DNA of 7,938 nucleotides from an uncultured Butyricicoccus sp. (GTDB taxonomy: Bacteria > Bacillota > Clostridia > Oscillospirales > Butyricicoccaceae), in the NCBI GenBank assembly GCA_900544475.1, contig UQVU01000084.1:1-7938 (forward strand), read 5' to 3'. Within the stretch, counting starts at the first letter, position 1, and the number at the start of each line of letters is the position of its first letter. Below, one piece after another: positions 1 to 7,752 of the stretch. The translations under genes and the position numbers were made by a program. The notes beneath the pieces were generated by a model. It worked only from the letters and a program-made list of their open reading frames with translations. It had not been told where the DNA came from and did not search any database.

Positions 1-863
1 CGGTACGCCTCGCCGAAGGTGTCCGTCAGGTAGGCCGCGACCTTTTCGCGCACGGACGCCATGCCCGGCGCGGGCGCGTAGGCGTGCAGCTGCGTGGGCG
101 GCACGGTGTGCAGCAGCCGCTCGACCGCCTCCTGCACGCAGTCCGGACGAAAGTACAGCAGCAGACCGTGGTCTGTCCCGACCGCGCGGTAGGGCAGCAG
201 GCCACAGCGGCACGCGGTTTCGGGCGGCAGGGAAGTGAGCTGCTGCGCGGCGTCGCCGTCGAGCGGGTCGTTCAGCAGAAGCGCCGCCTCGCCCCGGCAA
301 AGGATAAGTACCGGCTTTCCCGAAACCGGCTCGGTCAGCGTGTGGCCGCTGTCCCGGAGGACGCGCACGCGCCGCTCCCGCCCGCCGAACTGCACGGTGA
401 GTGGAAGGATTTCCTGCCGCACGCAGCCGTGCGCCGCATCGCCGCGAAGCAGCACGCCGCTGACCGCGTAGCCGACCGCCGCCGCGAGCAGCAGCAGACC
501 GAGCGGGACGGTGAAGTAGTAGCCGGCCCCGTACAGCAGCCGCCTGCCGGACGCCGCGCCGAGCGCATACGCCAGACCGGCGAAAGCCGCCGCCGTCACG
601 AAATACAGTCCGCCGAGCCGCAGCAGCGTCCGCTCACCGCCGAACGCCGCAAGGCAGAGCGCCGCGCCCATGGCTGCCCGGACGGGCAGGACGCCGAGCG
701 CGGGAAACAGCGCCGCGAGAACCGCATATGTGCCGCCGAGCAGGCAGGCGAGGACGAACCGTCCGCGATGCACCGCCGCCCCGGCGAGCCGCGCCGCCGC
801 GAGCAGGGTCACGCCGTCCATCAGGGCGTTCGCGCCGAACAGCACATCGAGATATATGACCAT
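1..863 (-). CDS. spoIIGA: SpoIIGA, sigma-E processing aspartic protease (3' end outside window)
   Basis: Membrane-bound aspartic protease that removes the pro-sequence of sigma-E in the mother cell after asymmetric division. Translating the minus strand from 863 gives 287 codons with no stop before the window edge; B. subtilis SpoIIGA has about 309 residues, so only a short C-terminal piece is missing. The N-terminus MVIYLDVLFGANALMDG is typical of the family. Hydrophobic stretches at about residues 2-27, 37-56, 62-76, 83-105 and 117-140 match the expected five-helix membrane domain. The soluble domain carries the catalytic motif D171-S-G-H174, then EPVSGKPV (178-185) and the late block LLPYRAVG...YFRPD (222-241). 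The family usually reads D-T/S-G-N, so His174 is a deviation. The ATG at 863-861 has a purine-rich RBS (AGGGAGGG) just upstream. Known synteny puts sigE and sigG downstream, to the left of the window. The identification rests on motifs read by eye and is strong. Confidence 0.92.
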   Translation of the reverse strand, partial: MVIYLDVLFGANALMDGVTLLAAARLAGAAVHRGRFVLACLLGGTYAVLAALFPALGVLPVRAAMGAALCLAAFGGERTLLRLGGLYFVTAAAFAGLAYALGAASGRRLLYGAGYYFTVPLGLLLLAAAVGYAVSGVLLRGDAAHGCVRQEILPLTVQFGGRERRVRVLRDSGHTLTEPVSGKPVLILCRGEAALLLNDPLDGDAAQQLTSLPPETACRCGLLPYRAVGTDHGLLLYFRPDCVQEAVERLLHTVPPTQLHAYAPAPGMASVREKVAAYLTDTFGEAY

Positions 864-892
864 CGTCCGTCCCTCCCTTGACCGGTACGCCT

Positions 893-927
893 ATCTTACC
901 ACGCCGGACAGGGGAGGGATTGCCGAA
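893..927 (-). promoter_or_regulatory. Candidate Spo0A-activated promoter of spoIIGA
   Basis: Reading leftward, TAAGAT (898-893) is a passable -10 hexamer about 30 bp before the spoIIGA ATG, and no sigma-A -35 hexamer is visible. Where a -35 should overlap lies TTCGGCA (927-921), the reverse complement of TGCCGAA, which fits the 0A-box core TGNCGAA. The gap between the two elements is 22 bp. In B. subtilis the spoIIG promoter is known to have an over-long spacer and a 0A box overlapping the -35, so the geometry is suggestive. A seven-base degenerate match can arise by chance. Confidence 0.4.
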
Positions 928-947
928 AGCGGGCAGGGAGAAAAGCG

Positions 948-996
948 AAAAAATGCCCGAAGCCGCTTCACTCCGGGGAAGAATGAAACGGCTTCG
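948..996 (-). terminator. Rho-independent terminator, leftward
   Basis: The arms at 959-973 and 981-995 (GAAGCCGCTTCACTC on the plus strand) pair over 15 bp around a 7-nt loop. In the leftward transcript two of the pairs are G-U, and C958/G996 adds one more pair. The leftward RNA then runs GGGCA followed by six T (953-948). No T-tract follows on the plus strand, so it acts leftward. It lies about 85 bp before spoIIGA and would insulate that promoter from upstream transcription. Confidence 0.8.
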
Positions 997-1104
997 AACA
1001 AAGAGTAGTATGTAAGTAAGATGTGGGCAGGAAAAAAGAGGTAAGAGGAAGGTATCAGGATATAAGTTCGTCGGAATAGCTGTTCTGCCGATGAAGCCGC
1101 TGCC

Positions 1105-1299
1105 GCGCGAATGCGCGCATGAAATGCAATCTGCGGAGCAGATTGATAAAAACCGGGGGCGTGTACCTCGGTTTTTATGCTTATAGAGAGATAAAAGTTT
1201 CTGCATAGGAACTTTTATCCGTCCGTGTTCTGCGCGTAGGGCGGGGTGACCTCACCCCGCCGCAAACACAGATTGTCGGCAAAACGAAGTTTTGCGACA
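1105..1299. repeat. Cluster of six tandem inverted repeats in a gene-free interval
   Basis: The interval 864-1448 has no credible gene, and its centre is packed with small palindromes: GCGCG/CGCGC (1105-1118); CAATCTGC-GGA-GCAGATTG (1127-1145); ATAAAAACCG/CGGTTTTTAT (1146-1178); GATAAAAGTT/AACTTTTATC (1190-1219); GGCGGGGTGA-CC-TCACCCCGCC (1240-1261); and TGTCG(g)CAAAAC-GAA-GTTTTGCGACA (1274-1299). Most are perfect over 8-10 bp. The third has an A-rich left arm and T-rich right arm and could terminate in either direction. The arms differ from one another, so this is not a direct-repeat or CRISPR array. A structured non-coding RNA or a nest of dispersed palindromic intergenic elements would fit; I cannot tell which from one copy. 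Confidence 0.75.
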
Positions 1300-1308
1300 G
1301 CTTAGCTC

Positions 1309-1361
1309 AAAAAAACAGCAAGAAAGCGAACGCCCACATCGGGTTCAGCTTCCTTGCTGTT
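1309..1361 (-). terminator. Rho-independent terminator of the M42 peptidase operon
   Basis: In the leftward RNA, AACAGCAAGGAAGC(T)GAAC (1361-1343) pairs with GTTCGCTTTCTTGCTGTT (1331-1314), with one G-U pair and one bulged base. The stem leads directly into a run of seven T (1315-1309). It lies about 90 nt beyond the stop codon of the last peptidase gene, the expected place for the operon's end. Confidence 0.85.
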
Positions 1362-1448
1362 ACGCTTATTTTACCGCAGAACGGCGCTTGCTGTCATCGT
1401 TCAAACTGCACAAAAGAAGTGTGCCGAATTCAGAAGGTTTGCACAGAA

Positions 1449-2450
1449 TCAGAGCTGTGCGAACTGCGCGAGCAGCTGAGTGGCCTGCTCCACGTCGGAC
1501 ACCGCGCACATCTCGCTCGGGGAGTGAATGTAGCGGGTCGGGATAGAAACCGCGCCTGCCGCAACGCCCGCTCGTGCCTTCTGGAGCACCGAGGTGTCCG
1601 TGCCGCCGCACAGGAGGATTTCGCGCTGGGTCTGAATGCCAAGCTGTGCGGCCGCCTTTTCGAGGTCGGCGCAGACAGCGGGCGAGCAGATGACCGAGTG
1701 GTCCATGACCTTGACGGTGGGGCCCTTACCGAGCGACACCGCCATCGGGGTCTTCATCTCGGGCAGGTCGCCGGTGTCGGTGACGTCCACCGCGATGGCA
1801 ACATCCGGCTCGACCGCGAACGCCGCCGCGCCTGCGCCGCGCAGACCGACCTCCTCCTGCGAGGTGAAAACGAAGTAGAGGTCGTTTTCTGTCTCGGTCT
1901 CCGCGAGCTGCTCCATCGCGAGCAGGAGCGTAACGCAGCCGATGCGGTTATCGAGGTACGGGCCGCAGAGCACGCCGTTCTGCTCGAATCGCGGCGCTTC
2001 GAATACCGCGAAATCGCCGATTTGCACGAGCTTTTTCGCCTCCTCGGCGTTCTTCGCGCCGATGTCGATGAACATATGCGCAAGCGTCATGTCCTTCATC
2101 GGGGTCTTTTCCTCGTAGGAAATGACGCCGCGCGTGCCGTTTGCGAACTTGACCGTGATGTTCACGAGGTCGGCGTAGTACAGACCGCCGATCTGCGAAA
2201 AGCGGATAAAGCCGTTCTCGTCAATATAGGTCGCGACCACACCGATCGAGTCCATATGCGCGGCGAACAGCACCTTTCTGCCGTCCTTCGCGCCCTTTTT
2301 GCGGCAGATGAGGTTGCCGAGGGCGTCGGTCGTTACGTCGTCGATATACGCGCCCGCGATGCCGGCGATGGTCTCGCGTACCGCGTCCTCGCGGCCGGAC
2401 GGGCCGAAGGCGCCGCCTACTTCATTCCATAAATCAAAAACCTTGCTCAT
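1449..2450 (-). CDS. M42 family metallo-aminopeptidase (third gene of operon)
   Basis: A 333-residue cytosolic di-metal aminopeptidase of the M42 family (TET, glutamyl aminopeptidase/endoglucanase-like), expected to cut N-terminal residues from short peptides. Visible family elements are FGPSGREDAVR (15-25), AAHMDSIG with H65 and D67, LDNRIGC with D167 as bridging ligand, the catalytic pair E199-E200 in SQEEVGLRGA, D222 in VDVTDTGD, and H309 in RYIHSPSE. All metal ligands and the catalytic base are therefore present. The start is ATG 2450-2448, preceded by GGAGGGG. An upstream extension to 2648 in the same frame is only shadow of the neighbouring gene. The ATG overlaps the TGA of the preceding paralogue by 4 bp, suggesting translational coupling. 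Substrate preference (acidic, neutral or basic N-terminus) cannot be read from the sequence. Confidence 0.93.
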   Translation of the reverse strand: MSKVFDLWNEVGGAFGPSGREDAVRETIAGIAGAYIDDVTTDALGNLICRKKGAKDGRKVLFAAHMDSIGVVATYIDENGFIRFSQIGGLYYADLVNITVKFANGTRGVISYEEKTPMKDMTLAHMFIDIGAKNAEEAKKLVQIGDFAVFEAPRFEQNGVLCGPYLDNRIGCVTLLLAMEQLAETETENDLYFVFTSQEEVGLRGAGAAAFAVEPDVAIAVDVTDTGDLPEMKTPMAVSLGKGPTVKVMDHSVICSPAVCADLEKAAAQLGIQTQREILLCGGTDTSVLQKARAGVAAGAVSIPTRYIHSPSEMCAVSDVEQATQLLAQFAQL

Positions 2451-3469
2451 TCGTCGTCCCCTCCAAGTTCTTCGAGAAATGCGCGAGCCGCCGCAAGGAC
2501 CGCTTCGCAGTCGGCTGCCGCCGCCACCGAGGACGGCGAGTGGATATAGCGTACCGGAGCCGCTGCGGCGCACACGCGCACACCGGCACGGCACTTGTGA
2601 ATGCGGCCGGCGTCCGTGCCGCCCGCCACGCGGGTCTTGGTCTGCCACGGAATGCCGCGCTTGATGCAGGCGTCGCGCAGCAGCTCGAACAGCTCCGCGT
2701 CATAGATGGTCGCGCCGTCCATGAACGGCAGCACAACGCCGCCGCGCACACGGCAGACCGCGTCTGCGCCCTTGACCTCGGCGAGGTCGGCCGCTGTCGT
2801 GCCCTCAAGCACCATGGCAAAGCCGGGGTCGAGCGCGAATGCCATGCTCGCCGCGCCGCGCAGACCGACTTCCTCCTGCACGGTGAAGCAGAACCAGGTG
2901 TCGATGGGAGGCTCGTCCTCAAGGAGCTTGAGCAGTGCCGCGCAGCCCACGCGGTCGTCAATCGCCTTGGCCTTAATGAGTCCGTCACCGAACTCGGTGG
3001 CCGCGGAGTCGAACACGCCGTAGTCGCCGAGCGACACCAGCTTTTCGGCCGCCGCCTTGGAGGTCGCGCCGATGTCGATATAGAGGTCCTTGGTTTTCGG
3101 CATGGTGCGGCGCTCGGCGGCAGTCGTGAGATGCACCGCCTTGATGCCGATAACGCCCTGAGTTTTGCCGAAGCGGACCGGACGGCCGATGACCACGCGC
3201 GGGTCTACGCCGCCGACAAAGCCGAATTTCAGGTAGCCGTCGTCGGTGATTTTCTTGATGATGACGCCGACCTCATCCATGTGTGCGCAGAGCACGACCG
3301 GACGCTCGAGCGCCTTTGCGCCCTTTCGGAACACCATGACGTTGCCGATGGCGTCCGTGCGGATTTCGTCCGCAAAGGGTTTTGCCTTTTTGAGTACGAA
3401 CTCGCGCACGGCGTCCTCGCAGCCGGACGGACCCGGCAGGGCGCAAAGCTCCTTCATCAGTTCAATCAT
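2447..3469 (-). CDS. M42 family metallo-aminopeptidase (second gene of operon)
   Basis: A 340-residue M42 aminopeptidase, paralogous to both neighbours. The order of motifs is LPGPSGCEDAVREF (11-24), CAHMDEVG (H63, D65), FVGGVDPRVVIG (84-94), IDDRVGC (D171), VQEEVGLRGA (E199-E200), LEGTTAAD (E222), GGTDAGRIH (283-291) and VRYIHSP (H310). At the position where the other two genes have Asp in VDVT, this one has Glu in LEGTT. Glu can still bind a metal, and I believe this variant also occurs in other clostridial M42 proteins, so activity is likely kept. The start is ATG 3469-3467 with GGAGG seven bases upstream, inside the end of the preceding gene. The two genes overlap by 4 bp (ATGA). No signal peptide or membrane segment is seen, so it is cytosolic. 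Confidence 0.93.
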   Translation of the reverse strand: MIELMKELCALPGPSGCEDAVREFVLKKAKPFADEIRTDAIGNVMVFRKGAKALERPVVLCAHMDEVGVIIKKITDDGYLKFGFVGGVDPRVVIGRPVRFGKTQGVIGIKAVHLTTAAERRTMPKTKDLYIDIGATSKAAAEKLVSLGDYGVFDSAATEFGDGLIKAKAIDDRVGCAALLKLLEDEPPIDTWFCFTVQEEVGLRGAASMAFALDPGFAMVLEGTTAADLAEVKGADAVCRVRGGVVLPFMDGATIYDAELFELLRDACIKRGIPWQTKTRVAGGTDAGRIHKCRAGVRVCAAAAPVRYIHSPSSVAAAADCEAVLAAARAFLEELGGDDE

Positions 3470-4500
3470 GCGCTCACCTCCCCGTCAAATTCACGCAGAA
3501 ACGCCGCCATGAGGTCCGCGACCGCCTCCACATCGGAGAGCGAAATGACCTCAACCGGCGTGTGCATATACTTCTGCGGAATGGAGAGCAGGGCGCACGC
3601 GATGCCGCGTCCGACGATCTGCATCGTCCATGCGTTCGTGCCGGTGTCGCCCTCCATGATTTCGAGAGTGTAGTCGATGTCGTTCGCCTTGGCGGTGCGG
3701 ATGATGGCCTTTGTCAGGCCGCGGTGCAGGTTGGGACCCATGCCGACCGCCGCGCCGCTGCCGAGGTCGAACACGCCGTCAGACGGGCCGTCCGGCGTTC
3801 TGCCGTGGGTGACGTCCACAGCAATGGCGTATTCCGGCTGCACGGCGAACGCGCCGGTCTGTGCGCCGAGACCGGTAACTTCCTCCTGTGCGCTGACGAG
3901 CACGGCGATGTTGCAGCGCAGCTTTTTCGCTTTTTTGAGCTGCTTCATCGCGAGCAGAATGGCGGCGATGCCGGCGCGGTCGTCAAGGCATTTGCTGCAC
4001 AGCTGACCGCCCGCAAGGGTGATGGGCGTCTGGCCGAAGAGGACGGGCGTACCGACCTTGATGCGGCTTTTCGCGTCTAAGAGACCGGTATCGATTGCCA
4101 TTTCGCTGATGGGAACGGCTTTATTCTGCTCGCCTGCCTTCAGAAGGTGCGGCGGCAGACAGGACACCACGCCGTAAAGCGGCTCGTCCGCGAGAAGCGT
4201 GACCTCGCTGCCGAGCAGCATACGGGGGTCAACGCCGCCGACCGGCGCGAAGCGCACGAAGCCGCCGTCCAGCACCTCGGTCACGAGAAAGCCGATCTGG
4301 TCGAGATGGGCGTCCAGCAGCACGGTCTTTGCGTTTTTGCGTCCGCAGGACTTGAAGCCGAGCATATTTCCGTTTCTGTCCACTTCGACCGTGTCGCAGT
4401 AGGGACGGAACAGCTCGGCCACGGCTGCGGCCGCCTGCGCCTCAAATCCGCTGACCGCAGGGAGCGCGGTGAGCTGGCGCAGCATTTGTTCTAACTGCAA
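3466..4500 (-). CDS. M42 family metallo-aminopeptidase (first gene of operon)
   Basis: A 344-residue M42 aminopeptidase and the most diverged of the three. Ligands and catalytic residues are present: DAHLDQIG (H65, D67), CLDDRAG (D173), SAQEEV (E206-E207), VDVTHG (D229) and KYMHTPVE (H313). After the EE pair it reads VTGLGAQTGAF instead of the VGLRGA seen in the two downstream paralogues, and the VDVT block is followed by a longer loop (HGRTPDGPSDGVFD). These changes suggest a different substrate pocket. The start is TTG 4500-4498: a full AGGAGG lies seven bases upstream, whereas the nearest in-frame ATG, five codons later, would be 22 bases away. The gene is first behind a good sigma-A promoter and overlaps the next gene by 4 bp. 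Confidence 0.92.
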   Translation of the reverse strand: MQLEQMLRQLTALPAVSGFEAQAAAAVAELFRPYCDTVEVDRNGNMLGFKSCGRKNAKTVLLDAHLDQIGFLVTEVLDGGFVRFAPVGGVDPRMLLGSEVTLLADEPLYGVVSCLPPHLLKAGEQNKAVPISEMAIDTGLLDAKSRIKVGTPVLFGQTPITLAGGQLCSKCLDDRAGIAAILLAMKQLKKAKKLRCNIAVLVSAQEEVTGLGAQTGAFAVQPEYAIAVDVTHGRTPDGPSDGVFDLGSGAAVGMGPNLHRGLTKAIIRTAKANDIDYTLEIMEGDTGTNAWTMQIVGRGIACALLSIPQKYMHTPVEVISLSDVEAVADLMAAFLREFDGEVSA

Positions 4501-4653: not shown

Positions 4654-5145
4654 ATGCAGCTCGAAATACGGAAGTATGAAACGAGGGACGCCATGCAGGC
4701 GGCGGCGGTCTGGAACGAGGTCGTGCGCGGCGGCGAGGCGTTTCCGCAGATGAATGAGCTGACCGAGCGGGACGCGGACGAGTTCTTTTCGTCCCAGTCG
4801 TTCACCGGACTGGCGGTTGACCGGGACACGGGCGAGATCGTCGGCCTGTATATCCTGCATCCGAACAACGTCGGCCGCTGCGGCCATATCTGCAACACAA
4901 GCTACGCGGTGAAAAGCGGCCTGCGCGGCCGGCATATCGGCGAAAAACTCGTGCGCCACAGCATGGAGCAGGGAAAGACGCTCGGCTACCGCATTCTTCA
5001 GTTCAACGCGGTCGTCGCGACGAACGCGAACGCGCTGCACCTTTATAAAAAGCTCGGCTTTACCCGGCTCGGCGTCATTCCCGGCGGCTTTCTCATGCCG
5101 GACGGAACATATGAAGATATAATTCCGCACTATCATATTCTGTAA
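4654..5145 (+). CDS. GNAT family N-acetyltransferase
   Basis: A 163-residue single-domain GNAT protein, expected to transfer an acetyl group from acetyl-CoA to an amine; the substrate is unknown. An N-terminal beta strand-helix segment (LEIRKYETRDAMQAAAVWNEV, 3-23) is followed by beta strands GLAVDRDTGEIVGLYILHP (52-70). The acetyl-CoA pyrophosphate loop is RGRHIG (91-96), where His94 occupies a position often Gly. The late motif is TNANALHLYKKLGF (123-136). The C-terminus (IPGGF...YEDIIPHYHIL) resembles GNATs that share a YEDI ending. The length is normal for the family. ATG 4654 is preceded by AAGGGGG. It is divergent from the peptidase operon, with no functional tie visible. I see no clear terminator before the sigG fragment. 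Confidence 0.88.
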   Translation: MQLEIRKYETRDAMQAAAVWNEVVRGGEAFPQMNELTERDADEFFSSQSFTGLAVDRDTGEIVGLYILHPNNVGRCGHICNTSYAVKSGLRGRHIGEKLVRHSMEQGKTLGYRILQFNAVVATNANALHLYKKLGFTRLGVIPGGFLMPDGTYEDIIPHYHIL

Positions 5146-5189: not shown

Positions 5190-5219
5190 GTATATTCCGC
5201 GGGGCGCGGGGGGAAAATC
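5190..5219 (+). promoter_or_regulatory. Candidate SigF-type (forespore) promoter of the sigG fragment
   Basis: GTATA (5190-5194), a 15-bp spacer and GGGGAAAATC (5210-5219) match the SigF pattern GYATA / GGNNANAHTW except for the last base. In B. subtilis, sigG is known to be transcribed from its own SigF-dependent promoter, so this is where one would be expected. The pattern is degenerate and the surroundings are G-rich, so chance is possible. A GCCGC-TTTTT-GCGGC hairpin lies between this site and the RBS. Confidence 0.45.
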
Positions 5220-5274
5220 TTGATAGAACGGTCGGGCCGCTTTTTGCGGCTTCCGCGCGACAGGAGGTTTTTTC

Positions 5275-5703
5275 ATGCAGGCAAAGGTCGAGATATGCGG
5301 CGTAAACACCGCCGAACTGCCCGTTTATTCGGCGTCCCAGACGGAGGCGATGCTGCGGCGGTCGGCGTCGGGCGACAGAGGCGCACGGGAGGAGCTTATC
5401 CGGGGCAACCTGCGGCTCGTGCTGAGCGTGGTGCAGCGCTTCCGCGACAGGGGAGAGTCGCCCGACGACCTGTTTCAGGTCGGCTGCATCGGGCTGATGA
5501 AATCCATCGACCACTTCAACACCGAGCTTGGCGTGCGTTTTTCCACCTATGCCGTGCCGATGAACGTTATTTGGGGAAATCCTCCGAAAAATACAATATG
5601 GACTGCCAGACCAGAGAAAAAAGGAGAAAATATATGCTATTCTGCAACATTGACCTGCTGGACGAAAACTTTAAGACACAGAAAAATCAGTATGTCGGCG
5701 TAA
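5275..5703 (+). pseudogene. sigG: Truncated sporulation sigma factor SigG (first 96 codons)
   Basis: Residues 1-96 match the start of forespore sigma-G almost block for block: KVEICGV (4-10), NLRLVLSVVQRF (45-56), RGESPDDLFQVGCIGLMKSI (59-78) and FSTYAVPM (89-96). Intact SigG is about 260 residues. Homology ends after Met96 (codon 5560-5562), where the family continues IIGEIRRYLRD. The frame then runs 46 unrelated residues, overlaps the next gene's start and stops at 5703. What remains is sigma region 2.1-2.2 and the start of 2.3, the core-RNAP-binding part. Region 2.4 and domains 3-4, needed for promoter recognition, are gone. There are no stops or frameshifts before the break, the RBS is excellent (AGGAGG, 7-nt spacing) and a SigF-like promoter remains, so the truncation looks recent. 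An intact sigG would be expected elsewhere, normally next to spoIIGA-sigE. An assembly chimera is the main alternative. Confidence 0.85.
5571..5597 (+). promoter_or_regulatory. Weak candidate promoter of the deaminase-phosphorylase operon
   Basis: TACAAT (5592-5597) is a good -10, but the only upstream candidate, TTGGGG (5571-5576), is poor and 15 bp away. It lies wholly downstream of the sigG breakpoint at 5562, so the operon would keep its own promoter after the rearrangement. Confidence 0.25.
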
Positions 5704-6920
5704 AGGACGGCCGCATCGCCTACATAGGCGCGGAAGAGCCGCAGGAGGACTTCGGCGAGCGCTATGACGGCCGTCACCGCCTGCTGCTGCCCGGCTTCTA
5801 CAACGTCCACAGCCACGCGCCGATGACGCTGCTGCGCGGCTACGCGGAGAACCTGCCGCTCCAGCGCTGGCTCGGCGAAAAGGTGTTCCCGTTCGAGGAC
5901 CTGCTCGATGAGGAGGCGGCGTACTACGGCACGCTGCTGGCGATTTCCGAAATGCTCGCGAGCGGCACGGTTTCCTTCTCGGATATGTACTTTTTCCTCG
6001 ACGGCATGACCAAGGCGATTTTCGAGAGCGGCATCAAGTGCAACCTGAGCCGCGGTCTTACCGTGTTCGACGACAGCGACTACACCGACCTGCCGGCCTA
6101 CCGCGACAACCTGCGTCTGCGCGGCGAGTGGAACGGCGCGAACGGCGGCCGTCTGCTCGGTGACCTGTGCATTCACGGCGAGTATACCTCCAACCCGAAA
6201 ATCGTCGAGGCGGTCGCGCAGCACGCCCGCGACACCGGCGCACGCATCCATATCCATCTGTCCGAAACCCAGACCGAGCACGAGGAGTGCAAGGGCCGCC
6301 ACGGCCTGACCCCGGCGGCGTACATGGAGAAGCACGGCATCTTCGACTCGCCGACGACGGCGGCGCACTGCGTCTGGCTTGAGGACGGCGACTTCGACAT
6401 TCTGAAAAAGCACGGCGTTACGGTTGCCTGCTGCCCGGCGAGCAACCTCAAGCTCGCCTCCGGCTACGCGAACGTTCCGAAGCTGCTCGAAAGCGGCATC
6501 AACCTCGCCCTCGGCACGGACGGCGCGGCTTCCAACAACAACCTGAACATCATGCAGGATATGTACCTGTTCGGCGTGGTCTACAAGGGCTTTTTCCGCG
6601 ACTCCACGCTCATCACCCCGGCCGAGGTGCTCCATGCCGCGACACGCGCCGGTGCGCTCAGCCAGGGCCGCGAGGACAGCGGCAGACTTGCTGTCGGCAT
6701 GCGTGCCGACCTGTGCGCCATCAACACGGACACGCCCCAGTTCACCCCGATGACCGACGCGGCGTGCAACGTGGTCTATGCCGCGCAGGGTGCGGACGTC
6801 TGCCTGACCATGGTGGACGGCGAGGTGCTCTACCGCGACGGCGTGTTCACCACCATCGACATCGAAAAGGTAAAGGCTGAGGTGCAGCGCCGCACGGACA
6901 GCATCCTCAGCAGACTGTAA
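5634..6920 (+). CDS. mtaD: 5'-methylthioadenosine/S-adenosylhomocysteine deaminase (amidohydrolase superfamily)
   Basis: A 428-residue zinc deaminase of the amidohydrolase superfamily, expected to convert MTA, SAH or adenosine to the inosine analogue plus ammonia in the cytosol. Zinc and catalytic residues of the MtaD/TM0936 type are visible: H59 and H61 in NVHSHAPM, H208 and catalytic E211 in HIHLSET, H245 in AAHCVWL, and D296 in LGTDGAASNN. The flanking small beta domain is present (QYVGVKDGRIAYIG near the N-terminus; RADLCAI and VDGEVLYRDG near the C-terminus). ATG 5634 follows AAGGAG by seven bases. The frame is open upstream to 5220, but that stretch is out-of-frame sigG sequence and not part of this protein. 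The stop lies 13 bp before the phosphorylase gene, indicating one operon. The superfamily and subgroup are firm; which of MTA, SAH or adenosine is preferred is not resolved. Confidence 0.88.
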   Translation: MLFCNIDLLDENFKTQKNQYVGVKDGRIAYIGAEEPQEDFGERYDGRHRLLLPGFYNVHSHAPMTLLRGYAENLPLQRWLGEKVFPFEDLLDEEAAYYGTLLAISEMLASGTVSFSDMYFFLDGMTKAIFESGIKCNLSRGLTVFDDSDYTDLPAYRDNLRLRGEWNGANGGRLLGDLCIHGEYTSNPKIVEAVAQHARDTGARIHIHLSETQTEHEECKGRHGLTPAAYMEKHGIFDSPTTAAHCVWLEDGDFDILKKHGVTVACCPASNLKLASGYANVPKLLESGINLALGTDGAASNNNLNIMQDMYLFGVVYKGFFRDSTLITPAEVLHAATRAGALSQGREDSGRLAVGMRADLCAINTDTPQFTPMTDAACNVVYAAQGADVCLTMVDGEVLYRDGVFTTIDIEKVKAEVQRRTDSILSRL

Positions 6921-6933
6921 GGAGGGACAAACC

Positions 6934-7752
6934 ATGCTGACACATGATGAAGTAAAGCAGTCGGCGGATTTCTTGCGCGAAAAGCTGCCGTTCACGCCCG
7001 AAATCGGCATCGTTCTCGGCTCGGGCCTCGGCCCGCTCGCGGAGGAGATCGAGCAGCCGGTCTGCATTCCTTACGGCGACATTCCGTTCTTCAAGGTTTC
7101 GACCGCGCCCGACCACGCCGGCCGTCTGGTCTGCGGTACGCTCTCGGGCCGCCGCGTTGTCTGTATGCAGGGCCGCCTGCACGGCTACGAGGGCTACGCG
7201 CCGGACGAGATCGCCTATCCGGTATATGTGCTGAAGGAGCTTGGCGTGCAGGCGCTCATCGTCACGAACGCCTCGGGCGGCATCAATACCGGCTTCGAGG
7301 TGGGCGACTTCATGCTCATCGACGACCACATCAACCTGACGGGCAAGAGTCCGCTCACCGGCGCGAACGACGCGGCCCTCGGCACGCGCTTCCCGGATAT
7401 GTCGTTCGCCTATGCACCGGCGCTGCGCGAAAAGGCGCTCGCGGCGGCAGAGAAGAGCGGCACGGCGCTGCGGCGCGGCGTTTACATCGGCGTGAACGGC
7501 CCGCAGTTCGAAACCCCGGCGGAGATCCGCGCGTTCCGCACGCTCGGCGCGGATGCGGTCGGTATGTCCACTGTGTTCGAGGTCATCGCGGCGTCGCACT
7601 GCGGTCTGCCCGTCCTCGGTATCGCCATGATAACGAACATGGCAGCGGGCGTGCTCAACAAGCCGCTCTCGGGCGCGGAGGTCAACGAAATCGCGGAGAA
7701 GCGCGGCGGCGTGTTCCGCGGCTACGTGAAAACGCTGGTTTCGATGCTGTAA
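6934..7752 (+). CDS. punA: Purine nucleoside phosphorylase, trimeric (class II) type
   Basis: A 272-residue cytosolic phosphorylase that cleaves (deoxy)inosine or guanosine with phosphate to give the base and (deoxy)ribose-1-phosphate. Family elements in order are the phosphate loop GSGLG (29-33), DHAGR with H61, QGRLHGYEGY (79-88), TNASGGIN (111-118), NGPQFETPAE with purine-binding E192, VGMSTVFE (209-216) and ITNMAAG with N234. Glu and Asn at these last two sites are known determinants of 6-oxopurine recognition, which fits a product of the deaminase upstream. The usual MSTVPE reads MSTVFE here. The length is normal. The ATG at 6934 is served by AAGGAGGG, which overlaps the deaminase stop codon. 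It belongs to the same transcript and is followed by a hairpin terminator. Acting as a methylthioinosine phosphorylase is possible but not shown. Confidence 0.92.
   Translation: MLTHDEVKQSADFLREKLPFTPEIGIVLGSGLGPLAEEIEQPVCIPYGDIPFFKVSTAPDHAGRLVCGTLSGRRVVCMQGRLHGYEGYAPDEIAYPVYVLKELGVQALIVTNASGGINTGFEVGDFMLIDDHINLTGKSPLTGANDAALGTRFPDMSFAYAPALREKALAAAEKSGTALRRGVYIGVNGPQFETPAEIRAFRTLGADAVGMSTVFEVIAASHCGLPVLGIAMITNMAAGVLNKPLSGAEVNEIAEKRGGVFRGYVKTLVSML

What the first reader, a model, noticed from the sequence alone, without database searches (positions are those of the whole stretch)
5275..5640. sigG cut cleanly after codon 96 and joined to the leader of a nucleoside salvage operon
The first 96 residues match sigma-G with no internal damage, and homology stops between one codon and the next (Met96 at 5560-5562). 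The next recognisable signals belong to the deaminase gene: a -10-like hexamer at 5592 and an RBS at about 5620. This is a rearrangement breakpoint inside an essential sporulation gene or, more likely, a partial duplicate of it. The undamaged reading frame suggests it is recent or still under selection.
Basis: partly seen in the sequence, partly recalled or inferred. Interest (0 to 1): 0.75.

Follow-up and report, generated by a model that had tools for sequence, protein, structure and literature searches.

The report
Spore sigma gene in two pieces
The spore-formation gene sigG stops after codon 96 here and in 21 of 25 genomes of related bacteria, while 22 of the 25 carry the rest of the gene at another place, directly beside a recombinase gene whose enzyme likely joins the two halves when a spore forms.

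Summary
The window is from an Agathobaculum relative. The 96-codon sigG piece upstream of the deaminase is a conserved locus: 21 of 25 clade genomes carry it. 22 of 25 carry sigG from codon ~95 on at another place, always 22-25 nt after a ~458-aa large serine recombinase gene. 20 carry both pieces; two carry a joined gene and no such recombinase. The non-sigG DNA beside the two pieces, put together, forms a dyad of the kind these enzymes bind: 12.2 of 19 complementary positions, 4-7 at shifted centres. Both pieces and the recombinase are under purifying selection (dN/dS 0.08, 0.04, 0.12). The 5' piece has a sigma-F-type promoter motif in 22 of 22 loci. Spore genes persist. Best explanation, inferred: site-specific recombination rebuilds sigG during sporulation, as with sigK/skin, but for a forespore gene and between two loci with no element between. 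No recombined junction was found in these assemblies; metagenome proteins hint at one in a close relative.

The parts
5190..5218 (+). sigma-F-type promoter motif GTATA-N15-GGGGAAAAT
   Evidence: 0 mismatches to GYATA-N15-GGNNANANT in 22 of 22 5' loci including the window; shuffled sequences average 2.7. The consensus is recalled.
5262..5267 (+). Shine-Dalgarno AGGAGG of the sigG 5' piece
   Evidence: sequence; SD-like motif in 20 of 20 5' pieces examined
5275..5562 (+). sigG 5' piece, codons 1-96
   Evidence: TIGR02850/NF006071; present in 21 of 25 clade genomes
5538..5583 (+). predicted recombinase attachment site (sigG-side arm, core, non-sigG arm)
   Evidence: the non-sigG arm, joined with the DNA left of the 3' pieces of relatives, forms a dyad (20 relatives tested; the window's own partner is not held); T/A-run spacing (PMC3783163)
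5555..5563 (+). 9-bp core TGCCGATGA shared by 5' and 3' pieces
   Evidence: 19 of 20 5' pieces (G011 has one change) and 21 of 22 3' pieces (G025 has one change); the joined genes of G001 and G012 each differ at one base
5563..5703 (+). non-sigG read-through after codon 96
   Evidence: open frames from the sigG start are 99-171 aa long in 20 loci
5634..6920 (+). downstream amidohydrolase/deaminase gene (neighbour)
6934..7752 (+). purine-nucleoside phosphorylase (neighbour)
   Evidence: TIGR01700 and NF006054 above cut-off
4654..5145 (+). GNAT acetyltransferase (upstream neighbour)
   Evidence: PF00583
3..863 (-). spoIIGA, cut by the window edge (sporulation neighbour)
   Evidence: PF03419

Best explanation
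In the Agathobaculum clade sigG is split at codon 96 between two chromosomal loci, and a large serine recombinase encoded directly beside the 3' piece is predicted to join the halves by site-specific recombination during sporulation. SHOWN: the two loci, the recombinase gene, the shared 9-bp core, the dyad formed by the two non-sigG arms, the selection on the pieces and the recombinase, and the promoter motif. Only the 5' half is in this window; that its own genome holds the 3' half is inferred from relatives. INFERRED: sigma-F transcribes the 5' piece in the forespore; a directionality factor lets the recombinase act on attL (this locus) and attR (the 3' locus) to make a complete sigG. A candidate factor is the ~62-aa ORF just before the recombinase. 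In the one single-contig genome where the halves are inverted (G017) the product would be a 757-kb inversion across the point opposite dnaA. The recombinase's default attP x attB reaction could split the gene again after germination.
For: (1) 25 clade genomes: 20 hold both pieces apart, G010 only the 5' piece, G020 and G021 only the 3' piece, G001 and G012 a gene joined at codon 96. (2) The recombinase (78% identity or more to the G014 copy) is in 22 of 25, exactly those with a separated 3' piece, and not found in the two joined genomes or G010. It has PF00239, PF07508 and PF13408; LRVST, KLDRLSRS, GRAMIGILSAFAQLERENI and CGHCG are present in 22 of 22, and it ends 22-25 nt before the 3' piece in 22 of 22. 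(3) att dyad: mean 12.2 of 19 over 20 genomes, 4.05-7.15 at 16 shifted centres; arm shuffles mean 5.0, maximum 7.0 (18 genomes). Three of the 19 positions pair an arm base with a core base. G013 carries a matching change on both arms. (4) Outer T/A runs begin at position 16 from the centre in the sigG-side arms and at 20 in the other arms, near the 5-bp shift described for serine integrases (PMC3783163, passages). (5) dN/dS 0.078 (5' piece, 20 sequences), 0.043 (3' piece, 22), 0.120 (recombinase, 22); deaminase reference 0.090 (12); means over pairs with pS below 0.65 (179 of 190, 129 of 231, 147 of 231, 51 of 66 pairs). (6) The promoter motif is perfect in 22 of 22. (7) SASP in 24 of 25 and SpoVAC/SpoVAEB in 24 of 25. 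(8) No SD-like motif before the 3' piece, 0 of 22. (9) For a close relative of the window the protein collection holds split halves (P0155, P0243) and joined sigG with nearly the same halves (P0005, P0006, P0014).
Against: No assembly shows both states: the joined junction was found in 4 of 28 genomes, none of them split at codon 96, and the reciprocal attP-like junction in 0 of 28 (exact pattern that would miss G013 and G025 variants). In G014 the halves lie in direct, not inverted, orientation 112 kb apart, so joining would put sigG on an excised circle; I did not verify that assembly. The joined metagenome proteins could be assembly chimeras, which are evident in the same lists (for example P0032, P0089, P0099). 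Arms paired within a genome fit no better than arms swapped between genomes (12.2 against 12.21). No sigma-F-type promoter could be shown before the recombinase operon. The directionality-factor idea rests on position and conservation only: no family match, weaker selection (dN/dS 0.30 over 14 sequences), low-confidence model. G001 and G012 are not the simple recombination product: their joined gene lies at the 3' locus and the 5' locus is empty.
Confidence: 0.74

Rival explanations
1. The same recombinase joins and splits sigG at random in growing cells, as a phase-variation switch that makes only some of the population spore-competent, not as a developmental step.
For: Joined and split forms of one close relative of the window coexist in metagenome proteins; two clade genomes are joined (G001, G012); no sigma-F-type promoter could be shown before the recombinase.
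Against: Serine integrases are directional and need an extra factor for attL x attR (PMC3783163, PMC5025042, passages); neither alternative junction was found by pattern in the 21 clade genomes with a separated 5' piece.
Confidence: 0.12
2. The two pieces are translated separately and the polypeptides assemble into a two-part sigma factor.
For: Both pieces are under strong purifying selection; a two-subunit sigma factor (SigO-RsoA of B. subtilis) is recalled.
Against: The cut is inside region 2; 0 of 22 3' pieces have an SD-like motif against 20 of 20 5' pieces; the open frames of the 5' piece end at varying lengths, 99-171 aa; it does not explain the recombinase, the dyad, or the absence of the recombinase in the two joined genomes.
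Confidence: 0.07
3. It is the scar of an old phage-type integration followed by rearrangement, in bacteria that have given up sporulation; the pieces are fossils.
For: G055, outside the clade, is split at the same place with a distant recombinase (49% identity). I saw no spore report for the genus, but only paper listings were viewed.
Against: dN/dS 0.04-0.12 for pieces and recombinase, intact frames, a perfect promoter motif in 22 of 22, SASP and SpoVA genes in 24 of 25 each.
Confidence: 0.05
4. One reading: recent partial duplicate of sigG or assembly join.
For: Seen alone, a truncated gene joined to another gene's leader.
Against: Same junction in 21 of 25 genomes from many assemblies and no second full sigG found in any of those 21.
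Confidence: 0.01

Closest known systems
skin element in sigK (B. subtilis, C. difficile), SpoIVCA / CD1231 + CD1234
   Same: A sporulation sigma gene is split; [quoted passage not shown] a small protein acts as directionality factor (PMC5025042, passages).
   Different: sigK is a mother-cell gene, so excision happens in a terminal cell; sigG acts in the forespore, whose DNA is inherited (established knowledge). Here no excisable element was found between the halves: they sit at separate loci among host genes.
gin in gerE (B. cereus), SPbeta in spsM, vfbin in spoVFB, yin in yabG, an element in spoVR
   Same: Excision of an element rebuilds a split sporulation gene; gin also uses a 9-bp shared core (PMC5595907, PMC10747680, PMC5025042, passages).
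   Different: Each is an inserted element removed by excision. sigG is not named among the interrupted genes in the passages read.
Prophage in comK (Listeria)
   Same: Regulated gene rebuilding in a cell that is not terminal (PMC5025042, discussion passage).
   Different: A prophage in a competence gene; not sporulation and not two separate loci.
Serine integrase att sites (A118/LI integrase)
   Same: Pseudo-palindromic attP, and outer motifs nearer the centre in attB (PMC3783163, passages).
   Different: Shift here about 4 bp, 5 bp described; no phage seen at the clade's two loci.

Membership tests
Sporulation gene-intervening (skin-like) element | Host gene split at a short core shared by both halves | tested here: met
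   TGCCGATGA in 19 of 20 5' pieces (G011 one change) and 21 of 22 3' pieces (G025 one change)
Sporulation gene-intervening (skin-like) element | Large serine recombinase gene beside one half | tested here: met
   22 of 22 separated 3' pieces; the window's own 3' locus is not held
Sporulation gene-intervening (skin-like) element | Inverted-repeat attachment sites at the split | tested here: met
Sporulation gene-intervening (skin-like) element | Excisable element lying between the two halves | tested here: not met
   G017: inverted halves 757 kb apart; G014: 3' piece before 5' piece, 112 kb apart; in the other 18 of 20 the halves are on different contigs. The 5' piece is followed by the deaminase gene, and a phosphate acetyltransferase gene lies upstream of the recombinase where seen
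Sporulation gene-intervening (skin-like) element | Directionality factor | tested here: inconclusive
   ~62-aa conserved ORF just before the recombinase; no family; model mean pLDDT 60
Sporulation gene-intervening (skin-like) element | Recombination during sporulation | not testable with these tools
   needs cultures
Large serine recombinase | Resolvase, Recombinase and zinc-ribbon domains with the catalytic motif | tested here: met
   PF00239, PF07508, PF13408 in the G014 copy; LRVST in 22 of 22; TP901-1 and A118 integrases among solved relatives
Sigma-G (TIGR02850) | Full-length match above cut-off | tested here: not met
   window ORF matches positions 2-95 of 254 only
Two-polypeptide sigma factor (SigO-RsoA type, recalled) | Each half has its own translation start | tested here: not met
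   SD-like motif 20 of 20 for 5', 0 of 22 for 3' pieces

The most novel reading that the evidence does not exclude
A reversible chromosome rearrangement in the germ-line cell: in each forespore a domesticated serine recombinase fuses two distant chromosomal loci (in G017 by a 757-kb inversion spanning the point opposite the origin region) to assemble the master forespore sigma gene, and the same enzyme splits it again after germination. The chromosome itself, not a phage, is the intervening element, and a genus-wide developmental step depends on it.
Probability: 0.38. Interest if true: 0.95.

Novelty: new variant of a known kind. Interest (0 to 1): 0.84.

Why it matters
The rebuilt sporulation genes named in the passages read (sigK, spsM, spoVFB, gerE, yabG, spoVR) are interrupted by removable elements, and one paper argues that sitting in genes of terminal cells keeps such elements inherited at little cost to the host (PMC5025042; it also notes comK in a non-terminal cell). 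sigG works in the forespore, whose chromosome becomes the next generation. A split sigG kept across a genus, with a domesticated recombinase and no element found between the halves, would go against that logic and would call for a reversible rearrangement in a cell whose DNA is inherited. It is directly testable by junction PCR.

Tried and rejected
Rejected: assembly join or recent duplicate; Rfam element or tRNA at the breakpoint (none found in the window); repeats within the window that would explain the piece (none). A sigma-F-type promoter before the recombinase operon was tested and not supported (13 genomes: mean 2.0 mismatches, shuffles 2.58, lowest shuffle mean 2.15). The ACAAGTATTATTT block there also occurs in G012, which lacks the recombinase, so it probably belongs to the divergent phosphate acetyltransferase gene. 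Same-genome covariation of the arms was tested and not found. The model of the ~62-aa ORF was too poor to use, so no fold search was run. Unsolved: how G001 and G012 came to have a joined gene at the 3' locus with the 5' locus empty, and which locus is the ancestral home of sigG. Paper searches for a split or interrupted sigG found no report: (listings; passages read in four papers). Genus spore reports: (listings only).

Limits: no whole genome is held for the window. The genus name is the record's own for L001-L014 only; G015-G019 and G022-G025 are placed by the family search and the tree, G020 and G021 by the family search and the recombinase alone. In one search only 19 candidates were scored in genomes with more (G001: 19 of 38; G012: 8 of 8). 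Long match lists were cut. The order survey used an exact pattern and missed variants such as G013 and G025.

Full report
What is there. ORF 5275-5703 begins with a clean sigma-G N-terminus and loses all similarity after Met96 (5560-5562). Its neighbours are a GNAT gene upstream, a deaminase and a purine-nucleoside phosphorylase downstream, and spoIIGA plus three M42 peptidase genes further left on the other strand. A scan of genome contigs with the deaminase found 25 loci, 14 of them Agathobaculum, at 76-84% identity. Twelve of those 14 carry the same 96-codon piece at the same place.

The other half. A sigma-G profile search of the 14 genomes, then of 87 genomes of the family, showed why the piece is conserved. 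Of 25 clade genomes (G001-G025), 20 have sigG 1-96 and sigG ~95-254 in separate places; one has only the 5' piece, two only the 3' piece, and two (G001, G012) have a gene continuous across codon 96. In the 21 with a separated 5' piece no other complete sigG was found. Of the 62 other family genomes, 53 are uninterrupted at codon 96 (one of them, G047, is split later), one (G055) is split there, and eight gave nothing that I could read as sigG. The joined-codon pattern is found in 4 of 28 genomes tested: G001, G012 and two outside the clade, G026 and G047.

The recombinase. Every separated 3' piece (22 of 22) starts 22-25 nt after the stop of a ~458-aa large serine recombinase. The recombinase occurs at 78% identity or more in exactly those 22 genomes and was not found in the two joined genomes or in G010. 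A ~62-aa ORF lies just before it in the 14 of 22 loci with enough upstream sequence; 13 copies are 64-73% identical to that of G014, and in G002 it overlaps the recombinase start by ATGA. In C. [quoted passage not shown]

The attachment sites. The two pieces share TGCCGATGA (19 of 20 5' pieces, 21 of 22 3' pieces). DNA left of that core at the 3' locus and right of it at the 5' locus lies outside the recombinase and sigG reading frames and at separate places in the genome, yet put together it is a dyad: 12.2 of 19 positions on average in 20 genomes, 4.05-7.15 at 16 other centres, 5.0 for shuffled arms (18 genomes). Three of the 19 positions use a core base on one side. Outer T/A runs begin nearer the centre in the sigG-derived arms (position 16) than in the others (position 20) (four 5' loci and three 3' loci printed), which resembles the attB/attP difference of serine integrases (PMC3783163, passages). 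The window's own arms fit this layout.

Function is kept. Mean dN/dS over pairs with pS below 0.65 is 0.078 for the 5' piece, 0.043 for the 3' piece and 0.120 for the recombinase, against 0.090 for the deaminase. The 5' piece has a perfect sigma-F-type promoter motif in 22 of 22 loci and an SD-like motif in 20 of 20; the 3' piece has none in 22 of 22. Open frames of the 5' piece end at 99-171 aa. Small acid-soluble spore protein genes and SpoVA genes, sigma-G targets by established knowledge, are present in 24 of 25 genomes each. This fits a gene meant to be rejoined at the DNA level rather than two proteins or two fossils.

History. On a deaminase+phosphorylase tree (29 leaves) the joined genomes are nested among split ones: G001 is the sister of the window (support 100) and G012 lies in a clade of six (support 98). 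The branch G016/G017/G025 separates first (support 94) and is split, so the split most simply dates from the clade ancestor. The ancestral home of sigG is unresolved: G052 keeps an intact sigG beside the genes that follow the 3' piece, and G051 has them about 5 kb away, but in G044-G047 and G050 an uninterrupted codon 96 lies beside the deaminase, in divergent orientation. G055 carries a split at the same place with a distant recombinase (49% identity) and other genes after the 5' piece, which suggests that integrating elements aim at this codon.

How joining would work. Only G014 and G017 have both halves on one contig. In G017 they are inverted, at 1.747 and 2.504 Mb of a 4.006-Mb contig with dnaA at 3.918 Mb, so joining would be a 757-kb inversion across the point opposite dnaA. 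In G014 they are in direct orientation 112 kb apart, so joining would excise a circle that carries sigG. The second case sits badly with a simple inversion model. sigE, which precedes the 5' piece in most relatives, was not found near it in G014, so a later inversion may have flipped the 5' piece there. This is inference.

Is the joined state real? It was not found in the split assemblies. In the protein collection a close relative of the window (P0155, 91% identical over the 96 residues) has split halves (P0155, P0243) and joined proteins with nearly those halves: P0005 on two contigs, P0006 on one, P0014 on an 18.3-kb contig; one residue different in the first 96 and 97.9-98.6% identical over 140 residues beyond. 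For the window's own 96 residues only split forms appear among the best 120 (by the sequences fetched and the listed lengths). Chimeras of sigG from different groups are evident in the same lists, so this is a hint, not proof.

Known and new. Rebuilding of split sporulation genes by excision is known for sigK, spsM, spoVFB, gerE, yabG and spoVR (PMC10747680, PMC5595907, PMC5025042, passages). In the searches named under Tried and rejected I found no report for sigG. Two features depart from the known kind: no excisable element was found between the halves (tested here), and the gene is a forespore sigma factor (established knowledge). I therefore do not file it as a skin-like element, but as something that likely works like one.

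Noticed in passing
G003, G007, G013, G016, G024, G047 (loci L066, L067, L065, L171, L173, L175; tails L147, L153, L141, L133, L150, L155); also G001 and G055: A second break in sigG near codon 243 (after EIHISQ) in eight of the 28 genomes compared. In seven of the eight (not G001) the frame before the sigG tail is a long ORF that ends like a serine recombinase (read in full only in G024; no family search). Arms resemble CGTCCTTTCGTTT / AAACGAAAGGACG. In G024 the interval is about 9.2 kb, in G003 about 22.9 kb. The close pair G016/G017 differs by it.
   Followed up: partly
G047 (L175, L191): The sigG tail after the second break lies about 10 kb away on the opposite strand, so the second element there appears inverted and not simply inserted.
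   Followed up: no
window 1-4500: spoIIGA and three M42 peptidase genes are on the minus strand here but on the plus strand, in line with GNAT and the deaminase, in L001, L004, L005 and L007 (also in L011 and L013, where no GNAT was found): a local inversion just upstream of the sigG piece. In L012 only sigE-spoIIGA is flipped.
   Followed up: no
window 1449-4500: Three tandem, diverged M42 aminopeptidase paralogues, found together in seven of the 14 Agathobaculum loci.
   Followed up: no
P0032, P0081, P0089, P0099, P0125, P0159, P0207, P0210: Metagenome proteins that join a sigG N-terminus of one group to the rest or the tail of another: probably assembly chimeras through conserved sigG DNA, though P0210 is listed on eight contigs.
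   Followed up: partly
G055 contigs C66 and C205 (L174, L166): Split at about codon 96 outside the clade, with a recombinase 49% identical and other genes after the 5' piece: possibly an element still in place.
   Followed up: partly
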